Shown in pieces: positions 964 through 25,129 of a stretch of 64,000 nt of DNA (position 1 is its first letter; every line of letters begins with the position of its first letter). This stretch comes from Cupriavidus pauculus (lineage in GTDB: Bacteria; Pseudomonadota; Gammaproteobacteria; Burkholderiales; Burkholderiaceae): the NCBI RefSeq assembly GCF_003854935.1, contig NZ_CP033969.1, positions 930,001-994,000 on the forward strand. Direction: 5' to 3'. Below the pieces are notes generated by a model that worked only from the letters and a program-made list of their open reading frames with translations, was not told the DNA's origin and did not search any database. A program made the position numbers and the translations under genes.

Positions 964-1737
964 ATGGCCAAGGTATTCGTGATCGCCAACCAGAAGGGTG
1001 GTGTGGGCAAGACCACCACGACGGTGAACCTGGCCGCCGGTCTGGCCGCGCAGGACCAGCGGGTGCTGCTGGTCGACCTGGATCCCCAGGGCAACGCATC
1101 GATGGGCTCGGGCATCGACAAGCAGTCGCTGGAACACAGCGTGTACCAGGTGCTGCTGGGGCTGGCGTCGGTGCCGCAGGCGCGCCAGCGGTCGGAAGCC
1201 GGACGCTACGACGTGCTGCCGGCCAACCGCGAACTGGCCGGCGCCGAAGTCGAACTGGTGGATCTGGACCAGCGCGAGCGCCGGCTCAAGCAGGCGCTGG
1301 CCGAGGTGGACGACCAGTACGACTTCGTGCTGATCGACTGCCCGCCGTCGCTGTCGCTGCTGACCCTGAACGGCCTGTGCGCGGCGCACGGCGTGATCGT
1401 GCCGATGCAGTGCGAGTACTTCGCGCTGGAGGGGCTATCCGACCTGGTCAACACGATCAAACAGGTGCACGCGAACCTGAACCGCGACCTGAAGGTGATT
1501 GGCCTGCTGCGCGTGATGTTCGATCCGCGCGTGACGCTGCAGCAGCAGGTGTCGGCCCAGCTTGAGGCGCATTTCGCGGAGAAGGTCTTCAAGACCGTGA
1601 TCCCGCGCAATGTGCGGCTGGCCGAGGCGCCGTCGTACGGCATGCCCGGCGTGGCATTCGATGCGTCCTCCAAGGGCGCCAAGGCGTATCTCGATTTCGG
1701 CGCGGAGATGATCGCGCGCGTCCGCCAGCTCGGTTGA
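964..1737 (+). CDS. parA: Chromosome-partitioning ATPase ParA (Soj)
   Basis: A 257-residue deviant-Walker ATPase. It starts MAKVFVIANQ, with KGGVGKT at residues 11-17 supplying the signature lysine and P-loop, and carries a VLIDCPPSLSLLTLNGL Walker-B region. It binds non-specific DNA in its ATP form and moves the ParB-parS complex during origin segregation. ATG 964 is chosen because AGGAG at 947-951 lies 12 bases upstream and because Soj proteins begin at this MAKV/I motif. Upstream in-frame ATGs near 916-922 would add an unconserved leader. parB follows 32 bases after the stop. Confidence 0.95.
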   Translation: MAKVFVIANQKGGVGKTTTTVNLAAGLAAQDQRVLLVDLDPQGNASMGSGIDKQSLEHSVYQVLLGLASVPQARQRSEAGRYDVLPANRELAGAEVELVDLDQRERRLKQALAEVDDQYDFVLIDCPPSLSLLTLNGLCAAHGVIVPMQCEYFALEGLSDLVNTIKQVHANLNRDLKVIGLLRVMFDPRVTLQQQVSAQLEAHFAEKVFKTVIPRNVRLAEAPSYGMPGVAFDASSKGAKAYLDFGAEMIARVRQLG

Positions 1738-1769
1738 GCGGCACGAACTGACAGGGAAGGGTGGCGAGC

Positions 1770-2663
1770 ATGGTGACCGCTAAGAAGAAGGGGCTGGGCC
1801 GGGGACTGGAAGCACTGCTCGGCGGGCCGGCCGAGATCGTCGAGACGGCGCGGCAGGAAGGGCTGCCGTCGGTGCTCAACGTCAATCAGCTTCAGCCGGG
1901 CAAGTACCAGCCGCGCACGCGCATGGACGAGGGCGCACTGCAGGAGCTGGCCGCCAGCATCCGCGCGCAGGGCCTGATGCAGCCGATCCTGGTGCGCCGC
2001 GTGGCCGAGCCGGATCGCTACGAGATCATCGCCGGCGAACGCCGCTACCGCGCGTCGAAGCTCGCCGGGCTGGACAAGGTGCCGGTGCTGGTCAAGGACG
2101 TGGCCGACGAGGCCGCGGCCGCCATGGCGCTGATCGAGAATATCCAGCGCGAGGACCTCAATCCGCTGGAAGAGGCGCAGGGCATCATGCGGCTGATCCG
2201 CGAATTCAGCTTCACGCACGAGCAGGCCGCGGAGTCGGTGGGCCGCTCGCGCAGCGCGGTGTCGAACCTGCTGCGGCTGCTGAACCTGGCCGCGCCGGTG
2301 CAGACCATGCTGATGGCGGGCGACCTGGACATGGGGCACGCGCGGGCGCTGCTGGCCGTCGACGGCGCCAACCAGATCACGCTGGCCAACCAGATCGTCA
2401 ACAAGCGGCTGTCGGTGCGCGAGACGGAAAAGCTGGTCGCCTCGACGCTGAAGCCGTTCGACCTGAAGTCGCTCAAGCAGAAGCAGGGCAACGGCACGCG
2501 CGACGTGGCGCGGCTGGAAGAGGAACTGTCCGACGCGCTGGGGCTGGCCGTGCAGATCAAGCTCGGCGCGCGCGGCAAGGGCCAGTTGACCATCCACTTC
2601 AACAACAACGACGCGCTGGACGGCGTGTTGACGCGGCTGCGCGAGCCGGCGGCCAACGCCTAG
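1770..2663 (+). CDS. parB: Chromosome-partitioning protein ParB (Spo0J)
   Basis: A 297-residue CTPase and DNA-binding protein that loads on parS sites and spreads, forming the segregation complex moved by ParA. The N-terminus (KKKGLGRGLEALLGG) is the ParA-contacting segment. The ParB/Sulfiredoxin fold follows with QPRTRMDE and the GERRYRA nucleotide-binding box near residues 90-96, then the helix-turn-helix region (FTHEQAAESVGRSRSAVSNL) and a dimerisation tail. ATG 1770 is preferred over GTG 1761 because the AGGGAAGG ribosome site at 1753-1760 abuts the GTG but sits nine bases before the ATG. I did not find a perfect parS 16-mer in the window. Confidence 0.94.
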   Translation: MVTAKKKGLGRGLEALLGGPAEIVETARQEGLPSVLNVNQLQPGKYQPRTRMDEGALQELAASIRAQGLMQPILVRRVAEPDRYEIIAGERRYRASKLAGLDKVPVLVKDVADEAAAAMALIENIQREDLNPLEEAQGIMRLIREFSFTHEQAAESVGRSRSAVSNLLRLLNLAAPVQTMLMAGDLDMGHARALLAVDGANQITLANQIVNKRLSVRETEKLVASTLKPFDLKSLKQKQGNGTRDVARLEEELSDALGLAVQIKLGARGKGQLTIHFNNNDALDGVLTRLREPAANA

Positions 2664-3062
2664 CCGTTTCCACGGTATACGGCAATCGTTTTACAGGTGG
2701 AATCGGTGGCCTGTCGGCCCGGCGCGACAGGCACGCCAGCGTGCACCATGCCGCGGCATGAATCTGCGCGATAACCGAACGGCGCCCGGCGCGTGTCGCA
2801 ATGCGGTGCACGCCGGGGCCGGGTCCAGTGACGGCCGATTCACCATCATGCCCGCTCGGGCGCGCGCAATCCGATTACGTTGCGCGTCATTGCCGCGCAA
2901 TATCCCACCATCCATCATGAAGGCGTGATAGCAACCGTTGTGCGAAATTCACTGCAAGCTAACTGAAAGCAGATTGACTCGTCTTGGCGATTGCTAATAG
3001 AATCGTGCGGTTTGAATTCTGGCCGGCGACGAAAAGTTCCGGCCTGGAACGAGGCTAGGCAG
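2664..3062. other. parB-atpI intergenic region
   Basis: About 400 bases without a supportable gene. The left part is GC-rich and carries no convincing terminator after parB. The right part becomes more AT-rich and holds the atp promoter described separately. Confidence 0.6.
2974..3003 (+). promoter_or_regulatory. Putative sigma70 promoter of the atp operon
   Basis: TTGACT at 2974-2979 and TAGAAT at 2998-3003 are separated by 18 bases, close to the sigma70 consensus. Transcription would start near 3010, about 50 bases before the atpI start, in a local AT-rich patch. No other equally good match was seen between parB and atpI. Confidence 0.6.
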
Positions 3063-3590
3063 GTGGTGGTTCGAGACCGTCAGCAGGAATATTCGCAAGC
3101 CGGCCCGGCGTCCCCCGGCAGTCGTCGTCACGACGATTGGCGAGACGACTGGGATGATAACGCCGAGCGCGAGGACGAAGCTGTCGATCCGCTGTCGCAT
3201 GCCGAGGCGGTGAGGCTGCTGGGCGAGCGCGCGTTGCGCCCGTCGCGGATGACACCGGGCAAGGTCGTGGTGGCCCAGATCGTGGTCACGCTGCTGTCGG
3301 CCCTGGCCTGGGCGATGTTCGCCGGGGCGCCGGGGCCTTCGGGCTGGTCGGCCTTCTTCGGCGGCATGGCGTGTTTCGTCCCGAGCGGCTTCTTCGCGCT
3401 GCGGCTGTACATGTCGCGCGCGCAGCCGTCGGTCGGCGGCCTGGTGGCCGGCGAGGCGATCAAGGTCTTCGGCACGGTGGCACTGCTGGTGCTGGTGATC
3501 GTGCTGTACCGCGAGCTTCGATGGGTGCCGCTGCTGGTCACGTTCCTGCTGGCGCTCAAGACTTACTGGGTGGCGCTCGCGATCCGCTAG
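3063..3590 (+). CDS. atpI: ATP synthase accessory protein AtpI
   Basis: About 175 residues. A hydrophilic, acidic N-terminal third (residues 1-65) precedes four hydrophobic segments beginning near VVVAQIVVTLLSALAW, GWSAFFGGMACFVPSGFF, IKVFGTVALLVLVIVLY and WVPLLVTFLLAL, the AtpI/I-subunit pattern. The family helps assemble the c-ring of the Fo sector. No standard start has a good ribosome site; GTG 3063 or 3066 is the most plausible because the next upstream codons are poorly conserved in character, so the start is uncertain. It is the first gene of the atp operon, 283 bases ahead of atpB. Confidence 0.8.
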   Translation: MVVRDRQQEYSQAGPASPGSRRHDDWRDDWDDNAEREDEAVDPLSHAEAVRLLGERALRPSRMTPGKVVVAQIVVTLLSALAWAMFAGAPGPSGWSAFFGGMACFVPSGFFALRLYMSRAQPSVGGLVAGEAIKVFGTVALLVLVIVLYRELRWVPLLVTFLLALKTYWVALAIR

Positions 3591-3873
3591 GCGGAGAGTC
3601 GCGAATCCCGTCGCCCGGGCCACGCCGCAAGGCAGGGCCACGGCTTGGGGTTCGGTCTCAGATGAGGCACCCATCCGGAATATCAAGGTTTCAACGCGCA
3701 GGGCGTCACAACGGTGCAGCGCTGCGTGAGCAAGGTTTTGCCCTGAACAATACGAAGGATTTGCCGCGGCGGTGACCGGTCATGTGACCGAAGGCCCAGG
3801 CAAGTCTCATACCGGTAGGCCGCCAGGGCGGTCGCCGGCAACGCAGATTTCGCAATATACCGATCGTTTCAAC

Positions 3874-6232: not shown

Positions 6233-7774
6233 ATGCAACTGAACCCCTCAGAAATCAGCGAGCTGATCAAGTCCCGCATCTCGGGTCTTGGCGCCGACGC
6301 TGAAGTGCGCAACACCGGCACGGTGATTTCCGTGACCGATGGTATCTGCCGCGTGCACGGCCTGTCCGGCGTGATGCAGGGCGAGATGCTGGAATTCCCG
6401 GGCAACACGTTTGGCCTGGCACTGAACCTCGAGCGTGACTCGGTGGGTGCCGTGGTGCTGGGCGAGTACGAACACATTTCGGAAGGCGATACGGTCAAGT
6501 GCACCGGCCGCATTCTGGAAGTGCCCGTGGGCAAGGAACTGCTGGGCCGCGTGGTCAACACGCTGGGCCAGCCGATCGACGGCAAGGGCCCGATCAACGC
6601 CAAGGAAACGGACGTGATCGAGAAGGTCGCCCCGGGCGTGATCGCACGTCAGTCGGTGAGCCAGCCGGTGCAGACCGGCCTGAAGTCGATCGACGCGATG
6701 GTGCCGATCGGCCGTGGCCAGCGCGAGCTGATCATTGGCGACCGCCAGACCGGCAAGACCGCCGTGGCCGTCGACGCCATCATCAACCAGAAGGGCAAGG
6801 GCGTCTTCTGCGTGTACGTGGCAATCGGCCAGAAGGCTTCGACGATCTCGAACGTCGTGCGCAAGCTCGAGGAAAACGGCGCGATGGAATACACCATCGT
6901 CGTGGCCGCCTCGGCTTCGGACTCGGCCGCCATGCAGTACCTGGCCGCGTACGCCGGCTGCACGATGGGCGAGTACTTCCGCGACCGCGGCGAAGACGCG
7001 CTGATCGTCTATGACGACCTGACCAAGCAAGCCTGGGCCTACCGCCAGGTGTCGCTGCTGCTGCGCCGCCCGCCGGGCCGCGAAGCCTACCCGGGCGACG
7101 TGTTCTACCTGCACTCGCGCCTGCTGGAGCGCGCCGCGCGCGTGAACGAGGACTACGTGTCGAAGTTCACGAACGGCGCCGTGACCGGCAAGACCGGTTC
7201 GCTGACCGCGCTGCCCGTGATCGAAACGCAGGCCGGCGACGTGTCCGCGTTCGTGCCGACCAACGTGATCTCGATCACCGACGGCCAGATCTTCCTGGAA
7301 ACCGACCTGTTCAACGCCGGTATCCGTCCCGCCATCAACGCCGGTATCTCGGTGTCGCGCGTGGGTGGTGCAGCCCAGACGAAGGTCATCAAGAAGCTGT
7401 CCGGCGGTATCCGTACCGACCTGGCCCAGTACCGTGAACTGGCTGCGTTCGCGCAGTTCGCCTCGGACCTGGACGATGCCACCCGCAAGCAGCTGGAGCG
7501 CGGCCGCCGCGTGACGGAACTGCTCAAGCAGCCGCAGTACCAGCCGCTGCAGGTGTGGCAACTGGCCGCGTCGCTGTACGCCGCGAACAATGGCTTCCTC
7601 GACAACGTCGACGTGAAGGACATCCTGCCGTTCGAAAAGGGCCTGCACGACCACCTGAAGACCAAGTTCGCCGACCTCGTCAACCGCATCGAAGAGACCA
7701 AGGATCTGTCGAAGGACGACGAAGCCGCCCTGCGTGCCGCGATCGAGGATTTCAGGAAGTCCGCCGCGTTCTAA
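6233..7774 (+). CDS. atpA: F1Fo ATP synthase subunit alpha
   Basis: 513 residues, the same length as the E. coli protein. The P-loop GDRQTGKT occupies residues 169-176, the E. coli numbering, and the alpha-subunit signature [17 protein letters not shown] is intact. It is the non-catalytic nucleotide-binding subunit of F1. ATG 6233 has AGGAG at 6221-6225, seven bases upstream; GTG 6230 overlaps and is less likely. Confidence 0.98.
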
Positions 7775-7844
7775 CCGCGTGATTCCACGGACCGCGCCGT
7801 GACGCCGCAAGGCTGACGGCGCGGCACGAATGGAGAGGAAAGAT

Positions 7845-8720
7845 ATGGCCGGAACGAAAGAGATTCGAACCAAGATCAAGAGCGTGCAGAACACGCGCAA
7901 GATCACCAAGGCGATGGAAATGGTCGCCGCGTCCAAGATGCGCAAGGCGCAGGAACGGATGCGCAATGCCCGCCCGTACGCCGAGAAAGTGCGCAATATC
8001 GCCGCGCACCTGGCCACCGCCAACCCCGAGTTCAAGCATCCGTTCATGATTGGCCGCGACGTCAAGCGCGCCGGCATGATCGTGGTGACGACCGACAAGG
8101 GCCTGTGCGGCGGCTTGAACACGAACGTGCTGCGTGCGGTGACCAACGAGCTGAAGACCCTGCAGAACCGTGGCGTGGCCGTCCAGGCCACCGCGATCGG
8201 TACGAAGGGGATGCAGTTCCTGGGCCGTATCGGCGCCAAGGTGGTCTCGAACGTTGTGCACCTCGGTGACACCCCGCATCTGGAAAAGCTGATCGGCGCC
8301 ATCAAGGTCCAGCTCGACGCCTTCACCAACGGCGAAGTCGACGCGGTGTACCTGGCCTATACCAGGTTCATCAACACGATGAAGCAGGAGCCGGTGGTCG
8401 AGCAACTGCTGCCGCTGGCGGCAGACAAGCTGAACCAGACCGAAGATGAAAAGCGCGCCTACTCGTGGGATTACATCTACGAGCCCGACGCCCAGACGGT
8501 TGTGGAAGAGCTGCTCGTCCGCTACGTCGAGGCGCTGGTGTACCAGGCCGTGGCCGAGAACATGGCGTCGGAACAGTCGGCGCGCATGGTGGCCATGAAG
8601 GCGGCTTCCGACAATGCCAAGAACGTGATTGGCGAACTGCAGCTGGTCTACAACAAGACCCGCCAGGCCGCGATCACGAAGGAACTGTCGGAAATCGTCA
8701 GCGGCGCAGCGGCGGTCTAA
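7845..8720 (+). CDS. atpG: F1Fo ATP synthase subunit gamma
   Basis: A 291-residue rotor subunit. The N-terminal helix ([20 protein letters not shown]) and the C-terminal signature ([20 protein letters not shown]) form the coiled-coil shaft inside the alpha-beta ring. ATG 7845 is used because GAGAGGAAA lies just upstream; an in-frame ATG at 7830 would place the ribosome site inside the gene. Confidence 0.96.
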
Positions 8721-10157
<1,437 letters not shown>

Positions 10158-10286
10158 GCGGCGTCTTTCGCTTTCGCGCGGCGTCGCGGCGGTCGTGCCC
10201 AGGCACGGCGCCGCGGCCAGCGTGAAGGCGGGACACAGGCTTCCTGATGTGCAGGGAGCCAACGCTTTCTGGAGAAAGGATCTTAT

Positions 10287-10703
10287 ATGGCAACCATTCT
10301 TGTAGACGTCGTCAGCGCGGAAGCGTCGATCTTCTCCGGTCAGGCGAAGTTCGTGGCGCTGCCCGGCGAGACGGGTGAACTGGGTATCCTGCCCGGCCAC
10401 ACGCCGCTGATCACGCGCATCCAGCCGGGTGCCGTGCGCATCGAGAAGGAAGACGGCAGCGAGGAATTCGTATTCGTTGCCGGCGGCATTCTCGAAATCC
10501 AGCCTCAGCACGTGACCGTTCTGGCCGACACCGCGATTCGCGGCGGCGACCTGGACGAAGCCAAGGCTCAGGAAGCCAAGCGTGCTGCGGAGGAACTGAT
10601 GCAGAACCAGAGCAGCGACCTGGACCTGGCGCGCGCCCAGAGCGAACTGGCCGTCGCCGCTGCCCAGCTCGCCGCAATCGCCCGCCTGCGCCGCAAGAAG
10701 TAA
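10287..10703 (+). CDS. atpC: F1Fo ATP synthase subunit epsilon
   Basis: 138 residues: an N-terminal beta-sandwich ([20 protein letters not shown]) and a C-terminal helical hairpin rich in Ala/Glu/Lys. The subunit binds gamma and can inhibit ATP hydrolysis through the C-terminal helices. GAGAAAGGA stands upstream of the ATG. It is the last operon gene, and a perfect terminator follows 47 bases after the stop. Confidence 0.96.
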
Positions 10704-20814: not shown

Positions 20815-21966
20815 ATGAGCTCGACATTCCGCAAGACGGCCATGACCGTCGCCATGGCCGTTGCAGGCCTGACCGCCGCCTCGGCCGCTTTCGCGCAGGC
20901 GCAGGAAATCAAGCTGGGCTACGCCGGCCCGCTGACCGGCGGCCAGGCCCAGTACGGCAAGGACATGCAGAACGGCATCGTGCTGGCCATCGACGACATG
21001 AACGCCACCAAGCCGAAGATCGGCGGCAAGGAAGTCAAGTTCGTCCTGGTCTCCGAGGACGACCAGGCTGACCCGAAGACCGGTTCCGTCGTGGCCCAGA
21101 AGCTGGTCGACGCCGGCATCCAGGGCATGCTCGGCCACTTCAACTCGGGCACCAGCATCCCGGCGTCGATGGTCTACAACCGCGCCGGCATTCCGCAGAT
21201 CGCCATGGCGACGGCCCCGGAATACACCCGCCAGGGCTTCAAGACCACGTTCCGCATGATGACGTCCGACACGCAGCAGGGTTCGGTGATCGGCGCCTTC
21301 GTGGTGAAGAAGCTGGGCGCCAAGAACATCGCCATCGTCGACGACCGCACTGCCTACGGCCAGGGCCTGGCCGACGAGTTCGAGAAGGCTGCCAAGGCCG
21401 CCGGCGGCAAGATCGTGCGCCGCGAATTCACGAACGACAAGGCCGTCGACTTCAAGGCCGTGCTGACCAACATCAAGCGCAGCAACCCGGACGTGATCTT
21501 CTACGGCGGCGCCGAGACGCAGTCGGCCCCGATGGCCAAGCAGGTCAAGGAACTGGGCCTGAAGGCACCGATCGTCTCGGGCGAAATGTCCAAGACCGAC
21601 AACTTCCTGAAGCTGGCCGGCACGGCCGCCGACGGCACCGTGGTGTCGCTGGCCGGCCTGCCGCTGGAGCAGATGCCCGGCGGCGCCGCCTACGAGAAGA
21701 AGTACGAGAAGCGCTTTGGCTCGAAGGTCCAGACGTACTCGCCGTACGCCTATGACGGCGCCACCGCGATGATGACCGCCATGATCAAGGCTGGTTCAGC
21801 AGATCCGGCACGCTACCTGCCGGTGCTGGCCGCCACGAACATGCAGGGCGTGACCACCAAGACCCTGGCCTACGACGCACGCGGCGACCTGAAGGACGGC
21901 GGCATCACCGTCTACAAGGTCGAAGGCGGCAAGTGGACCGTGCTGGAGACCGTGGGCGGCAAGTAA
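20815..21966 (+). CDS. Branched-chain amino acid ABC transporter substrate-binding protein
   Basis: 383 residues of the LivJ/LivK (Peripla_BP_6) family. A signal peptide is visible at residues 1-27 with an ASAAFA cleavage region, and the mature protein begins near QAQEIKLGYAGPLTGGQAQY. It would bind leucine-type or other amino acids in the periplasm and deliver them to an inner-membrane ABC permease. AAGGAG precedes ATG 20815. No permease or ATPase genes adjoin it, so its transporter is encoded elsewhere. Its place after putA suggests amino acid uptake, but ligand identity is unknown. Confidence 0.9.
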   Translation: MSSTFRKTAMTVAMAVAGLTAASAAFAQAQEIKLGYAGPLTGGQAQYGKDMQNGIVLAIDDMNATKPKIGGKEVKFVLVSEDDQADPKTGSVVAQKLVDAGIQGMLGHFNSGTSIPASMVYNRAGIPQIAMATAPEYTRQGFKTTFRMMTSDTQQGSVIGAFVVKKLGAKNIAIVDDRTAYGQGLADEFEKAAKAAGGKIVRREFTNDKAVDFKAVLTNIKRSNPDVIFYGGAETQSAPMAKQVKELGLKAPIVSGEMSKTDNFLKLAGTAADGTVVSLAGLPLEQMPGGAAYEKKYEKRFGSKVQTYSPYAYDGATAMMTAMIKAGSADPARYLPVLAATNMQGVTTKTLAYDARGDLKDGGITVYKVEGGKWTVLETVGGK

Positions 21967-21978
21967 TCCCGCCCCAAC

Positions 21979-22058
21979 GCGCGCCGGACGGCTTTCCTAC
22001 GGCCGGCGCGCAGGCAGAACTGACGCCACCCGGGCATCGGCCCGCGGTGGCGTTTTTT
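21979..22058 (+). terminator. Double-hairpin terminator after the binding protein
   Basis: A perfect 9-base-pair stem (21979-21987 with 22003-22011) is followed by a second GC-rich stem (22024-22035 with 22040-22052, one bulged base) and six T at 22053-22058. The second hairpin with its T-run is a standard rho-independent terminator. Confidence 0.88.
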
Positions 22059-22147
22059 ATTGGCCGTGCATTTCAGGGAACACCGATTGCGGCCTATCGC
22101 CCACGCCTAATAGCCTGCTGCGTCAGCTTCGACAAACAGGGGGAACG

Positions 22148-22222
22148 ATGGCGATGTTCTACGCGGCGGTGGAGGGTGATCCGCTGGATGTCTCTCTGCA
22201 ATTCGATAGCTGGATCCGCTGA
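22148..22222 (+). pseudogene. 24-codon stub, possible PAAR-protein remnant
   Basis: A short frame encodes MAMFYAAVEGDPLD and then ten unrelated residues before TGA. A strong AGGGGGAA ribosome site stands in front of the ATG. The first 14 residues resemble the N-terminus of PAAR-domain spike proteins, which often run VEGDPLDSGG, but the expected glycine-rich continuation is missing. My reading is a truncated type VI secretion PAAR effector gene whose body was deleted, leaving the start beside its neighbours. This is inference from a short match; it could also be a real micropeptide. Confidence 0.35.
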
Positions 22223-22227
22223 CGGTC

Positions 22228-22593
22228 ATGTGGCGCTATCTTAGGAGGCTTCTTCCCTGGGCCTTCCTTTATATCTGCTTCGGTTTCGTCGTCTTCAAAT
22301 TCGAGCGCGGCGTTCCCTACGACGACGAGTGCTGGAGCCCAAATCATGAGTACTTTATGGTGCGGAGGGAGTCGCTTGTGTCCTCCTGGACTTCGCGGCA
22401 TGGAGACAGGGACGGTTGGGTCCTGATCTACGACAAGTACGGCAAGTTGCTACATCGGTGGGACGGCGGGCTCAGTTCCGAGGGCGGGCCGTGGTGGTCG
22501 GGCACTGCTATCCATTTCTTCAATGAGCCCCAAGCCACGCTCGATCTTCCGACCGACGCGGGGCGGACTGATTTGGTACGGCTCTGCTATTGA
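22228..22593 (+). CDS. Small membrane-anchored protein, tandem copy 1
   Basis: 121 residues of unrecognised family. A short basic start (MWRYLRRLLPW) leads into one hydrophobic segment (AFLYICFGFVVF), consistent with a membrane anchor or uncleaved signal. The rest is a compact domain with motifs CWSPNHEYFMVRRESL, GWVLIYDKYGKLLHRWDG and EGGPWW, ending with a C-terminal Cys-Tyr. It is closely paralogous to the next gene, about four in five residues identical over the shared length. The arrangement recalls tandem immunity genes beside polymorphic-toxin or type VI effector loci; that function is inference. Confidence 0.75.
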   Translation: MWRYLRRLLPWAFLYICFGFVVFKFERGVPYDDECWSPNHEYFMVRRESLVSSWTSRHGDRDGWVLIYDKYGKLLHRWDGGLSSEGGPWWSGTAIHFFNEPQATLDLPTDAGRTDLVRLCY

Positions 22594-22595
22594 CC

Positions 22596-22970
22596 ATGAG
22601 GCGCTTTTTTCGGTGGCTGCTACGCGTTTTGCCATGGCTCGTGTTTTATATCTGCTTCGGCTTCGTCGTCTTCAAGTTCCAGCGCGGCGTTCCCTACGAC
22701 GACGATTGTTGGAGCCCGAATCACGAATATTTCATGGTGCGCAAGGAATCGCTGGTGTCCTCGTGGACGTGGCGACACGAAGACCGGGAGGGTTGGGTGC
22801 TGATCTACGACAAGTACGGCAATCTCGTGCATCGATGGGATGGCGCGCTCAACACCGAAGGTGGGCCGTGGTGGTTTGGCACCGAGGTCCATATCTTCAA
22901 CAAACCTCAAGCCACGCTGCATCTCCCGACGGACGCGGGGATGAGCGATTTCCATCGGCTTTGCTATTGA
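22596..22970 (+). CDS. Small membrane-anchored protein, tandem copy 2
   Basis: 124 residues, paralogue of the preceding gene, which ends two bases upstream. It has the same layout: basic start (MRRFFRWLLRVLPW), one hydrophobic segment, then CWSPNHEYFMVRKESL, GWVLIYDKYGNLVHRW and EGGPWW, with the Cys-Tyr end conserved. ATG 22596 is used; TTG 22590 overlaps the previous stop and is a less likely start. Differences between copies cluster in surface-like positions after WTW/WTS and before the C-terminus, as expected for duplicated and diverging specificity genes. Product function unknown. Confidence 0.75.
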   Translation: MRRFFRWLLRVLPWLVFYICFGFVVFKFQRGVPYDDDCWSPNHEYFMVRKESLVSSWTWRHEDREGWVLIYDKYGNLVHRWDGALNTEGGPWWFGTEVHIFNKPQATLHLPTDAGMSDFHRLCY

Positions 22971-22976
22971 CCATGG

Positions 22977-23162
22977 ATGCGCTTCCGGTGGCTGCGACAG
23001 GTCTCGCCATGGCTCGCGTTCTATATCTGCTTCGGCTTCGTCTTCAAGCTCCACCCACCCCCAAAATCCCCCCGTCAACCCCGATCAACCCCCATTCTTC
23101 CGCTGTTCTCCCGGGAGCATGTCGCGCCGTTGGCGCATAATTCCGCTTTTGCTGAATTCTGA
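22977..23162 (+). pseudogene. Truncated third copy of the tandem gene
   Basis: The frame begins MRFRWLRQVSPWLAFYICF, clearly the N-terminal anchor of the two preceding genes, but leaves the family after about 25 codons and runs into a C-rich stretch and unrelated codons. The frame stays open to TGA at 23160-23162, which overlaps the ATG of the next gene. Everything downstream of the membrane segment is missing, so this is a 5' duplication remnant. Confidence 0.8.
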
Positions 23163-25129
23163 TGAAGGAGCGGGCCTTGCAGGATGTCCGTTACGACCAA
23201 GCCATTGCGCTTGCGAACGCCGGGCGCCATGACGATGCCTTGCAGGTAGCCGACCAGCTCTGGGCGGCGCATCCCGAGGTTGTCGACTACGCCGCGCTGC
23301 GTGCGCAGATCCAGTCCGACCGGGGCGACGTGGCCGGTGCGCTGGCTGCGCTGGACGAGGCGATGGCCCGGCTGCCGGAGTTGTCGCTGGCGCCGATGCA
23401 CCGCTGGGCGTCGCGCGGGGCGCTGGCGCACATGTATGGCACGTTGCTGATGCGCGAAGGCCGCGACGCCGAGGCGCAGCCGTGGCTGCACGAGGCGGCG
23501 CGGCGCAACGGGCTGGCTACTGGCGAGTGGGCCGCGCATTTCTACGCCGGCTTTGTCGCGTTCCGGCTCAACGATTTCGCGTTGGCCGGCCGGTACTGGC
23601 ACGACCTGCTGTACCGGGCGCCCGATCTCGGTGCGGGCGACATCCTGCCGCTGGTGCAGGACTACGTGGCCCGTAGCGACGCCGCCGCGCAGCTTGGCGA
23701 GCCGCTGTTGCGGATCTGCTTTGGCCGCATCGCGCTCGATTCGCCGGAATTGCTCGATCTCACGCCGGCGCAGGGCGATGCCCTGGCGGCGGCGCAGGCC
23801 GAACGCGTGCTTGCCGAGCAGGCCGACCATCCCGAGGCGCGCCGCCTGCGGGCCCCGCTGCGGCTGGGCTCGGAGCCGGCTGCCGCGCTGGACGACCTGG
23901 AGACCTATCTGCGCCAGCGGCCCGATCCGCTCGCGCAGGTGCGCGCGCTGACGTGGCGCCACCAGTCGCACGTGGCCGCCGGGGCCAGCGCGCCGGCCCA
24001 GCCTGCCTGGACCGGTTTTGCGGTCACGGCCGATGCCGACGATGGCGCGCTGTATTTCCACGCCGCCACGGCGCTCGGCAGCTTCCTGGACGAGGTGCCC
24101 GCCTCGCAGGCCGCGCTCAAGCCGATGCTGGAGGCCATGTGCCGCAAGGGGCTGGCCTGTTTCGAGTCGTATTTCGAGACCGGCGAGGGCGACGCCCACG
24201 GCCACGGCGGCAACGCCGATCCGCATCTGTACTCGCTGCTGTGCCGCTTGCTGGCGCGCACGCTGCCGGCCGACGCCACGCACCTGGAAGAGAAGGTCGC
24301 GCTGCACCAGAAAGGCATGGCCGCCAGCGAGTTCATCGACCACTGGATCGACCTGCTCGACGCCCACGCCGCGGCTGGCCAGCACCAGCAGGTGGTGGAC
24401 CTGGCCGGCGAGGTGCTGAACCGGTATCCGGTCGAGCGCGATCCGGCCCGCGTGAGCTGGGCGTTCAGCCGGCTGGTGGCCGCCTGGGCGGCAATCGGCG
24501 GCCGCGATGCCACCGAATCGGCCAGCGCCGCGCTTTCTCACATGGACATGCGGCTCGACGCGCTGCCCGTGGAGGCCCGCACCGAGGGCGCCCACGCCAT
24601 GGCCCATGCCCGCGCCCACTATGCCGCGCTGCTGCAAGCCGGCATGGCGACCATGGATGAGCACGACAAGGCCGACGCGGTGGCCGAGCTGGAAGCGCTG
24701 CAACGGCGGTCGCTGCTGGTCGACGATGCCTGGGTATCGGGCCGCTTCGGCCAACTCTGGCGCGACCTGGGCGACCACGAACGCGCGCTGCCACTGCTGG
24801 AACAGGCCGTGACGCTGGCGCAGGCCGATCCCCGCGCCCAGGCCACGGCGCGGGTGCAGCGTGCCCGGCTGCTGGTCGATCTGGAGCGTTACCCCGAGGC
24901 ACTGACCGACTTCCAGATGGCGTTTGCGGCACGCGACGACTGGGACGCCCATACCTGGCTGGTGGCCGTGCAGGCGGCCCTCGGCATGGGTCAGCGCGAA
25001 TCGGCGCTGGCGTGGTTCGAGCGGGCCCGTGCGCAGGATGCCGAAAAGGGCAGCACGCGTGGCTTGTTCGCCAAGGTCGAGGCGTCGCTGAAGGCCACCC
25101 GTCCCAAGTGGAAGCTCTGGGGCGTGTGA
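23162..25129 (+). CDS. Tetratricopeptide-repeat protein
   Basis: About 655 residues, predicted soluble, made of degenerate helical repeats. TPR-like pairs are clear at the N-terminus (YDQAIALANAGRHDDALQVA) and C-terminus (LGDHERALPLLEQAVTLAQ, LERYPEALTDFQMAFAA). No catalytic motif was seen and no signal peptide is present, so a cytosolic protein-interaction role is likely. The start is uncertain: ATG 23162 overlaps the previous stop, but AAGGAG at 23165-23170 lies six bases before TTG 23177, which may be the real start (MQDVRYDQAIALANAG). Confidence 0.8.
   Translation: MKERALQDVRYDQAIALANAGRHDDALQVADQLWAAHPEVVDYAALRAQIQSDRGDVAGALAALDEAMARLPELSLAPMHRWASRGALAHMYGTLLMREGRDAEAQPWLHEAARRNGLATGEWAAHFYAGFVAFRLNDFALAGRYWHDLLYRAPDLGAGDILPLVQDYVARSDAAAQLGEPLLRICFGRIALDSPELLDLTPAQGDALAAAQAERVLAEQADHPEARRLRAPLRLGSEPAAALDDLETYLRQRPDPLAQVRALTWRHQSHVAAGASAPAQPAWTGFAVTADADDGALYFHAATALGSFLDEVPASQAALKPMLEAMCRKGLACFESYFETGEGDAHGHGGNADPHLYSLLCRLLARTLPADATHLEEKVALHQKGMAASEFIDHWIDLLDAHAAAGQHQQVVDLAGEVLNRYPVERDPARVSWAFSRLVAAWAAIGGRDATESASAALSHMDMRLDALPVEARTEGAHAMAHARAHYAALLQAGMATMDEHDKADAVAELEALQRRSLLVDDAWVSGRFGQLWRDLGDHERALPLLEQAVTLAQADPRAQATARVQRARLLVDLERYPEALTDFQMAFAARDDWDAHTWLVAVQAALGMGQRESALAWFERARAQDAEKGSTRGLFAKVEASLKATRPKWKLWGV

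What the first reader, a model, noticed from the sequence alone, without database searches (positions are those of the whole stretch)
22148..23162. Tandem small-gene array behind a truncated start: possible orphan immunity locus
The sequence shows a 24-codon frame starting MAMFYAAVEGDPLD, two adjacent full paralogues (121 and 124 residues, one membrane segment each, about four in five residues identical), and a third copy cut off after its membrane helix. Tandem duplicated small membrane-anchored proteins beside a PAAR-like stub fit immunity genes left after loss of a type VI effector. The locus is strongly different in style from the core genes around it.
Basis: partly seen in the sequence, partly recalled or inferred. 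Interest (0 to 1): 0.72.

Follow-up and report, generated by a model that had tools for sequence, protein, structure and literature searches.

The report
Orphan immunity genes after effector deletion
In this soil-bacterium genome two small membrane genes, and a piece of a third, look like the protective half of a toxin-and-antidote set used in bacterial warfare whose toxin half has been deleted, leaving a 14-codon scar; some relatives still carry the toxin half or other scars of it.

Summary
Observation confirmed: a 24-codon stub, two complete tandem genes (121 and 124 aa, 76% identical, one N-terminal membrane helix each) and a third copy cut after its helix. At the same chromosomal site relatives carry a PAAR-type gene, a DUF6402 gene, then one to three homologues of the small genes; the stub matches the first 14 codons of that PAAR-type gene. 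A deletion from PAAR codon 15 to the last codons of DUF6402 fits best, with the upstream region and small genes kept. G078, nearest by the TPR gene, has a different deletion of the same kind (PAAR codons 1-9 fused to the DUF6402 C-terminus) and two intact small genes. The small-gene family is in 8 of 61 genomes of the genus; in the six other carriers with legible context it lies beside DUF6402 or its remains. Of 13 DUF6402 loci at other sites, 9 are followed directly by a small gene with a predicted membrane segment, against 3 of 358 background frames. Orphan T6SS immunity arrays are a known kind; the DUF6402 link was not found in the library searched. Toxicity, delivery and neutralisation are inferred, not shown.

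The parts
20815..21966 (+). left anchor of the site: ABC-type substrate-binding protein gene (function name recalled, not searched)
   Evidence: found in 55 of the 57 loci read
22035..22056 (+). terminator-like hairpin and T-run after the left anchor; homology to six empty sites ends at 22060-22066
   Evidence: (2 terminator-like sites found, 1.7 expected)
22063..22147 (+). upstream region kept from the effector module: CGATTG and TAGCCTGC are the same in the six loci aligned; AGGGGG before the stub reads as a Shine-Dalgarno sequence
   Evidence: alignment; sigma-70 scan found no promoter
22148..22189 (+). relic: first 14 codons of a PAAR-type gene
22190..22244 (+). probable relic: last codons of the DUF6402 gene (ends HVALS* in the frame that overlaps the gene 1 start); gives the stub its tail
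   Evidence: moderate support only
22228..22593 (+). putative membrane-anchored immunity gene 1 (121 aa)
22596..22970 (+). putative membrane-anchored immunity gene 2 (124 aa); starts after a 2-base gap
22977..23051 (+). third copy, cut off after its membrane helix; its open frame runs on to 23162
23069..23161 (+). right edge: stretch shared with empty sites upstream of the TPR gene (begins at 23069, 23074, 23100 or 23123, depending on the genome)
   Evidence: six empty sites
23162..25129 (+). right anchor of the site: TPR-repeat protein gene

Best explanation
The locus is an orphan immunity array. An ancestor carried a module PAAR gene - DUF6402 gene - tandem immunity genes between the substrate-binding protein gene and the TPR gene. 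In this lineage a deletion removed everything from PAAR codon 15 to near the 3' end of DUF6402, and another removed most of a third immunity copy. Left are the upstream region, the PAAR start codon with its Shine-Dalgarno sequence, a 24-codon stub that ends 5 bases before immunity gene 1, and two complete immunity genes. Proposed working, inferred: the stub is read as a leader from which ribosomes pass to genes 1 and 2; each protein sits in the inner membrane by its N-terminal helix with the roughly 95-residue beta domain outside, in the periplasm; there it binds and blocks DUF6402 effectors injected by neighbouring Cupriavidus that still own the module. Shown here: anatomy, synteny, homology, the relic PAAR start, and repeated loss of the effector gene beside intact small genes. 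Inferred: toxicity, T6SS delivery, topology, neutralisation, expression.
For: Same site in relatives: BIS7 has PAAR-DUF6402-small gene x3; U2 PAAR-DUF6402(broken)-small-small-PAAR relic-DUF6402-small; G010, G004 and G078 broken or deleted versions. 38 of 57 sites read hold only a gap of at most 317 bases. The stub matches PAAR starts. At all six DUF6402/small-gene junctions of the five relatives at this site the small gene begins inside the last DUF6402 codons, and the window keeps that overlap as HVALS*. G078 has PAAR codons 1-9 fused in frame to the DUF6402 C-terminus; window and G078 each keep sequence the other lost, so neither deletion derives from the other. Among carriers of the genus, by my count, DUF6402 is complete in 2 of 8 copies and the small gene in 14 of 17 (Fisher p 0.01). 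No DUF6402 in the window's genome at E<=0.001; a T6SS sheath gene (VipB) is present there and in 7 of 7 other carriers. Of 13 DUF6402 loci at other sites, 9 are followed within -60 to +100 bases by a 100-240 aa frame with a predicted membrane segment, 7 of them overlapping by 4 bases, against 3 of 358 background frames. In G343 a DUF6402 remnant and its membrane gene lie behind PAAR - Tae4 amidase - 111-aa hydrophobic protein. dN/dS 0.17 between genes 1 and 2.
Against: No toxicity or protection is shown for any member. DUF6402 has no described activity that I found, and its model was unusable (pLDDT 32). The stub is too short for a profile match. The junction to DUF6402 rests on 38 bases: single-target scores (at most 7.0) are matched or beaten elsewhere in the same loci (best 7.5 of 3,384 segments), the first U2 junction scores no better than shuffles (29.5%), and only the sum over six related targets stands out. 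No consensus promoter was found. dN/dS between paralogues may reflect selection before the effector was lost; the third copy is already broken. DUF6402 is more than twice as long as the small gene, so it is expected to break more often, and the loci share descent: Fisher's p is not corrected for either. Four of the 13 other DUF6402 loci lack the small membrane gene by the rule (L159, L164, L166, L168), and G343 counts three times. The intact PAAR-type genes score below the Pfam cut-off (U2, G075) or not at all (BIS7). Only the sheath gene was tested for T6SS, apart from PAAR matches.
Confidence: 0.8

Rival explanations
1. Decaying remains without present function: the effector module was lost and the two intact small genes simply have not decayed yet.
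For: Third copy already truncated; 38 of 57 sites are empty; no consensus promoter; no DUF6402 left in the genome to guard against.
Against: Two complete frames with a 2-base gap remain, with upstream region and Shine-Dalgarno sequence kept; the three genomes with effector deletions (window, G078, G004) all keep at least one complete small gene; low dN/dS, although that may predate the loss.
Confidence: 0.25
2. The small genes are not immunity proteins but accessory or delivery partners of DUF6402 (membrane adaptors, chaperones).
For: Adjacent to DUF6402 or its remains in all six other legible carriers and overlapping it at six junctions; a membrane segment is predicted; the fold is not diagnostic.
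Against: They persist, complete and in two copies, where DUF6402 is gone (window, G078); two to three divergent copies stand behind one effector gene (U2, BIS7), which fits immunity better than an adaptor; sequences differ widely between loci.
Confidence: 0.12
3. The DUF6402 module is not a T6SS effector set but, for example, a plain toxin-antitoxin pair with an accidental PAAR neighbour.
For: With the two PAAR queries used, only L166 and L167 of the loci visible showed a PAAR match; part of that output was cut.
Against: PAAR-type gene directly in front in U2, BIS7, G010 and G075; PAAR-Tae4 in front of a DUF6402 remnant in G343; T6SS sheath gene in 7 of 7 other carriers and in the window genome.
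Confidence: 0.1

Closest known systems
Orphan T6SS immunity gene arrays of Vibrio cholerae (Kirchberger et al. 2017, PMC5361080; passages seen, parts of the abstract among them)
   Same: Immunity genes kept after effector genes are replaced; arrays 3' of the effector position; U2 and G343 here look like displacement of an older module by a newer one.
   Different: Different effector and immunity genes; in the window the effector was deleted, leaving its first codons, and no new pair stands in front; copies 1 and 2 group together in a tree like tandem duplicates, not a mixed array.
rAID orphan immunity clusters of Bacteroidales (PMC12247911; abstract and outline seen)
   Same: Orphan immunity genes that diverge from the cognate ones and protect against T6SS effectors.
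   Different: rAID arrays are recombinase-associated and acquired; here the array sits in its effector's own former site, and no recombinase was looked for by profile.
Auxiliary T6SS toxin/immunity clusters of the Ralstonia solanacearum complex (PMC11481896; passages seen)
   Same: Related genus; small PAAR genes with toxin/immunity sets in some; putative immunity arrays or orphans reported in 13 aux types.
   Different: vgrG-linked clusters; no paper of the library holds the word DUF6402.

Membership tests
T6SS orphan immunity gene | homologous to the gene that pairs with an effector-like gene elsewhere | tested here: met
   homologues directly behind DUF6402 or its remains at the same site in U2, BIS7, G010, G004 and G078, and elsewhere in G075
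T6SS orphan immunity gene | no cognate effector gene in the genome | tested here: met
   PF19940 absent from G000 at E<=0.001 (in which no control genome rang); the same search finds it in 10 of 399 genomes of the order
T6SS orphan immunity gene | T6SS present in the lineage | tested here: met
   sheath gene VipB (PF05943) in G000 and in 7 of 7 other carriers; other T6SS parts not searched, apart from six PAAR matches
T6SS orphan immunity gene | protein neutralises the effector | not testable with these tools
   needs co-expression or competition assay
PAAR protein (PF05488), for the stub | profile match | tested here: not met
   24-aa stub gives no Pfam match; relic by alignment only, not filed as a PAAR protein
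PAAR protein (PF05488), for the intact gene in relatives | profile match above cut-off | tested here: inconclusive
   U2 26.5 bits against 27 (E 7.6e-6) and none for BIS7; G075 17.9 bits
DUF6402 (PF19940), for the gene in relatives | profile match above cut-off | tested here: met
   BIS7 218.6 bits against 26.4
DUF6402 remnant in the window | recognisable 3' end at the junction | tested here: inconclusive
   38 bases; summed score above all 988 other window 38-mers tried and reached by 0.3% of 3,000 shuffles, but single-target scores not exceptional; overlap codons HVALS*
rAID cluster | recombinase-associated array | not tested
   no recombinase profile search was run

The most novel reading that the evidence does not exclude
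DUF6402 is an undescribed class of PAAR-linked antibacterial T6SS effectors that act in the periplasm or at the inner membrane and are held off by small membrane-anchored immunity proteins; in Cupriavidus the effector is lost again and again while tandem immunity genes stay, and the relic PAAR start serves as a leader that keeps the orphan immunity genes translated.
Probability: 0.5. Interest if true: 0.55.

Novelty: new member of a known kind. Interest (0 to 1): 0.42.

Why it matters
It gives a family of unknown function (DUF6402) a testable role and partner, and shows orphan immunity formation in stages at one chromosomal site: intact, frame-broken, internally deleted, reduced to a scar, and empty. 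Two different deletions with the same outcome make the retention of immunity without effector directly testable.

Tried and rejected

Mistake found and corrected: the query IMM_U2b was in a wrong frame; the right copies were read, and no count uses the wrong one. The stub tail, sought first in whole loci, gave no credible hit; its likeness to the DUF6402 3' end was seen only when the two were set side by side. Frame breaks in U2, G010 and G075 come from single assemblies and could be sequencing errors; the deletions in the window, G078 and G004 could not easily be. The count 14 of 17 treats the fragment at the G012 contig edge as incomplete. The 358 background frames are open stretches of 250 codons or more on both strands, not all of them genes. 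Of the 57 sites read, 11 have larger gaps without a match to the queries; their contents were only glanced at. Two of the 59 genomes with the TPR gene (G002, G074; hits near contig ends) were not fetched. Of the 10 genomes with DUF6402, G120 (below cut-off) was not fetched. Output was cut; most loci in the cut part were looked at again. The name of the left anchor is recalled.

Full report
What is there. Between a substrate-binding protein gene (ends 21966; name recalled) and a TPR gene (starts 23162) the window holds a 24-codon stub, two complete tandem genes and a cut third copy, all on the + strand. Genes 1 and 2 are 76% identical, have a 2-base gap between them, and carry one N-terminal hydrophobic segment each. 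G+C drops to 56-60%. Pfam and NCBIfam hold no family for the proteins, and PHROGs none of significance.

Relatives. Among 60 genomes (36 of the genus, the window's included) only genomes of the genus matched gene 2 (6 of 60 by the tally). A profile search of the 61 genomes of the genus found the family in 8; in a draw of 399 genomes of the order only the window's own matched. The site between the anchor genes was read in 57 genomes, the window's included, of the 59 that have the TPR gene among 60 searched. Six have the small genes there, G012 has a fragment at a contig edge, 38 have a gap of at most 317 bases, 11 have larger gaps without a match, and one has no left anchor within reach.

Anatomy of the module. 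BIS7: PAAR-type gene, DUF6402 gene (PF19940, 218.6 bits), three small genes. U2: PAAR-type gene, frame-broken DUF6402, two small genes, a PAAR C-terminal relic, a second and intact DUF6402, one small gene. G010: PAAR-type gene, frame-broken DUF6402, one small gene and one truncated copy. G004: a short PAAR-like start, DUF6402 with an internal deletion, one small gene. G078: PAAR codons 1-9 fused to the DUF6402 C-terminus, two small genes. G075 has the module at another place, with a frame break in DUF6402 and two distant small genes, the first of which begins after the DUF6402 stop; its anchor site is empty. At the six junctions read in the other five relatives the small gene begins inside the last codons of DUF6402, in another frame.

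The stub is a scar. Its first 42 bases match the PAAR gene start of U2, BIS7 and G010 at 33, 32 and 33 positions; of 9,069 other ATG-starting 42-mers (window both strands, fetched loci over 5 kb as stored) 4 scored as high, all of them these PAAR starts. The upstream stretch is conserved as well: CGATTG and TAGCCTGC are the same in the six loci aligned. The bases after codon 14 resemble the DUF6402 3' end only moderately: the summed score over six targets, 26.5, is reached by 0.3% of 3,000 single-base shuffles and by none of 988 other window 38-mers, but single-target scores (-1.0 to 7.0) are matched elsewhere in the same loci (up to 7.5 among 3,384 segments), and one target, the first U2 junction, contributes nothing. 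The overlap codons read HVALS*, as against HVALP*, HVSLA*, HVPLD* and HVPLA* in relatives. The window keeps PAAR codons 10-14 that G078 lost, and G078 keeps some 40 DUF6402 codons that the window lost, so neither deletion derives from the other. Against six empty sites, homology stops at 22060-22066 on the left and resumes at 23069-23123 on the right, so the third copy, recognisable to 23051, is cut near the island's right edge.

Why immunity. By my count in the carriers, DUF6402 is complete in 2 of 8 copies and the small gene in 14 of 17 (Fisher p 0.01; neither shared descent nor the greater length of DUF6402 is corrected for). In the order DUF6402 occurs in 10 of 399 genomes. I read 13 loci outside the anchor site: 12 from nine of those ten genomes, two of them of the same genus, and G075. 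In 9 of 13, from 7 of 10 genomes, a 100-240 aa frame with a predicted membrane segment follows directly, 7 times overlapping by 4 bases. In G075 the next gene is a homologue by sequence but misses the hydropathy threshold; in L164 transposase-like frames (name recalled) stand in between; L159 and L168, the latter a short remnant, show none. The same rule met 3 of 358 background frames. In G343 the order is PAAR (PF05488, 38.7 bits), Tae4 amidase effector (PF14113, E 4.2e-25), a 111-aa hydrophobic protein, a DUF6402 remnant (profile positions 174-278) and its membrane gene, which looks like displacement of a DUF6402 pair by a Tae4 pair. The window's genome has a T6SS sheath gene and six PAAR matches but no DUF6402; all seven other carriers have the sheath gene.

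Mechanism and limits. Best reading: ribosomes still start at the PAAR start codon, end 5 bases before gene 1 and pass on; the proteins stand in the inner membrane with the beta domain in the periplasm and block DUF6402 effectors delivered by neighbours. Only the anatomy is shown. No promoter consensus was found, and no assay exists here.

Literature. Library searches for DUF6402 and PF19940 gave no paper. Orphan immunity arrays are well described: V. cholerae displacement model (PMC5361080, passages), rAID (PMC12247911, abstract and outline), Ralstonia aux clusters (PMC11481896, passages). The other papers were seen as listings only. The finding is therefore a new member of a known kind, with a probably undescribed effector family attached.

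Noticed in passing
L167 (G343:C1:1168000-1175000), reversed, 1377-3802: PAAR - Tae4 amidase - 111-aa hydrophobic protein - DUF6402 C-terminal remnant - membrane protein: looks like a DUF6402 pair displaced by a Tae4 pair.
   Followed up: partly
L015 (U2), reversed, 6928-10545: A second DUF6402 module lies behind the first, with what reads as a copy of the terminator region and a PAAR C-terminal relic in front of it: stacked modules.
   Followed up: partly
L164 and L163 (G236), reversed, L164 3481-4715 and L163 3339-3917: Transposase-like frames (names recalled) lie behind DUF6402 in L164 and between the two DUF6402 pieces in L163.
   Followed up: no
L016:5965-6549: The PAAR-type protein of BIS7 matches phrog_5348 (unknown function, E 1.9e-18), so related proteins occur among phage families.
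   Followed up: no
gaps between the anchor genes in L067, L068, L075, L076, L077, L084, L085, L086, L093, L094, L101: Eleven other genomes of the genus have 0.6-4.1 kb at this site without a match to the PAAR, DUF6402 or small-gene queries, so the site may accept other genes too.
   Followed up: no
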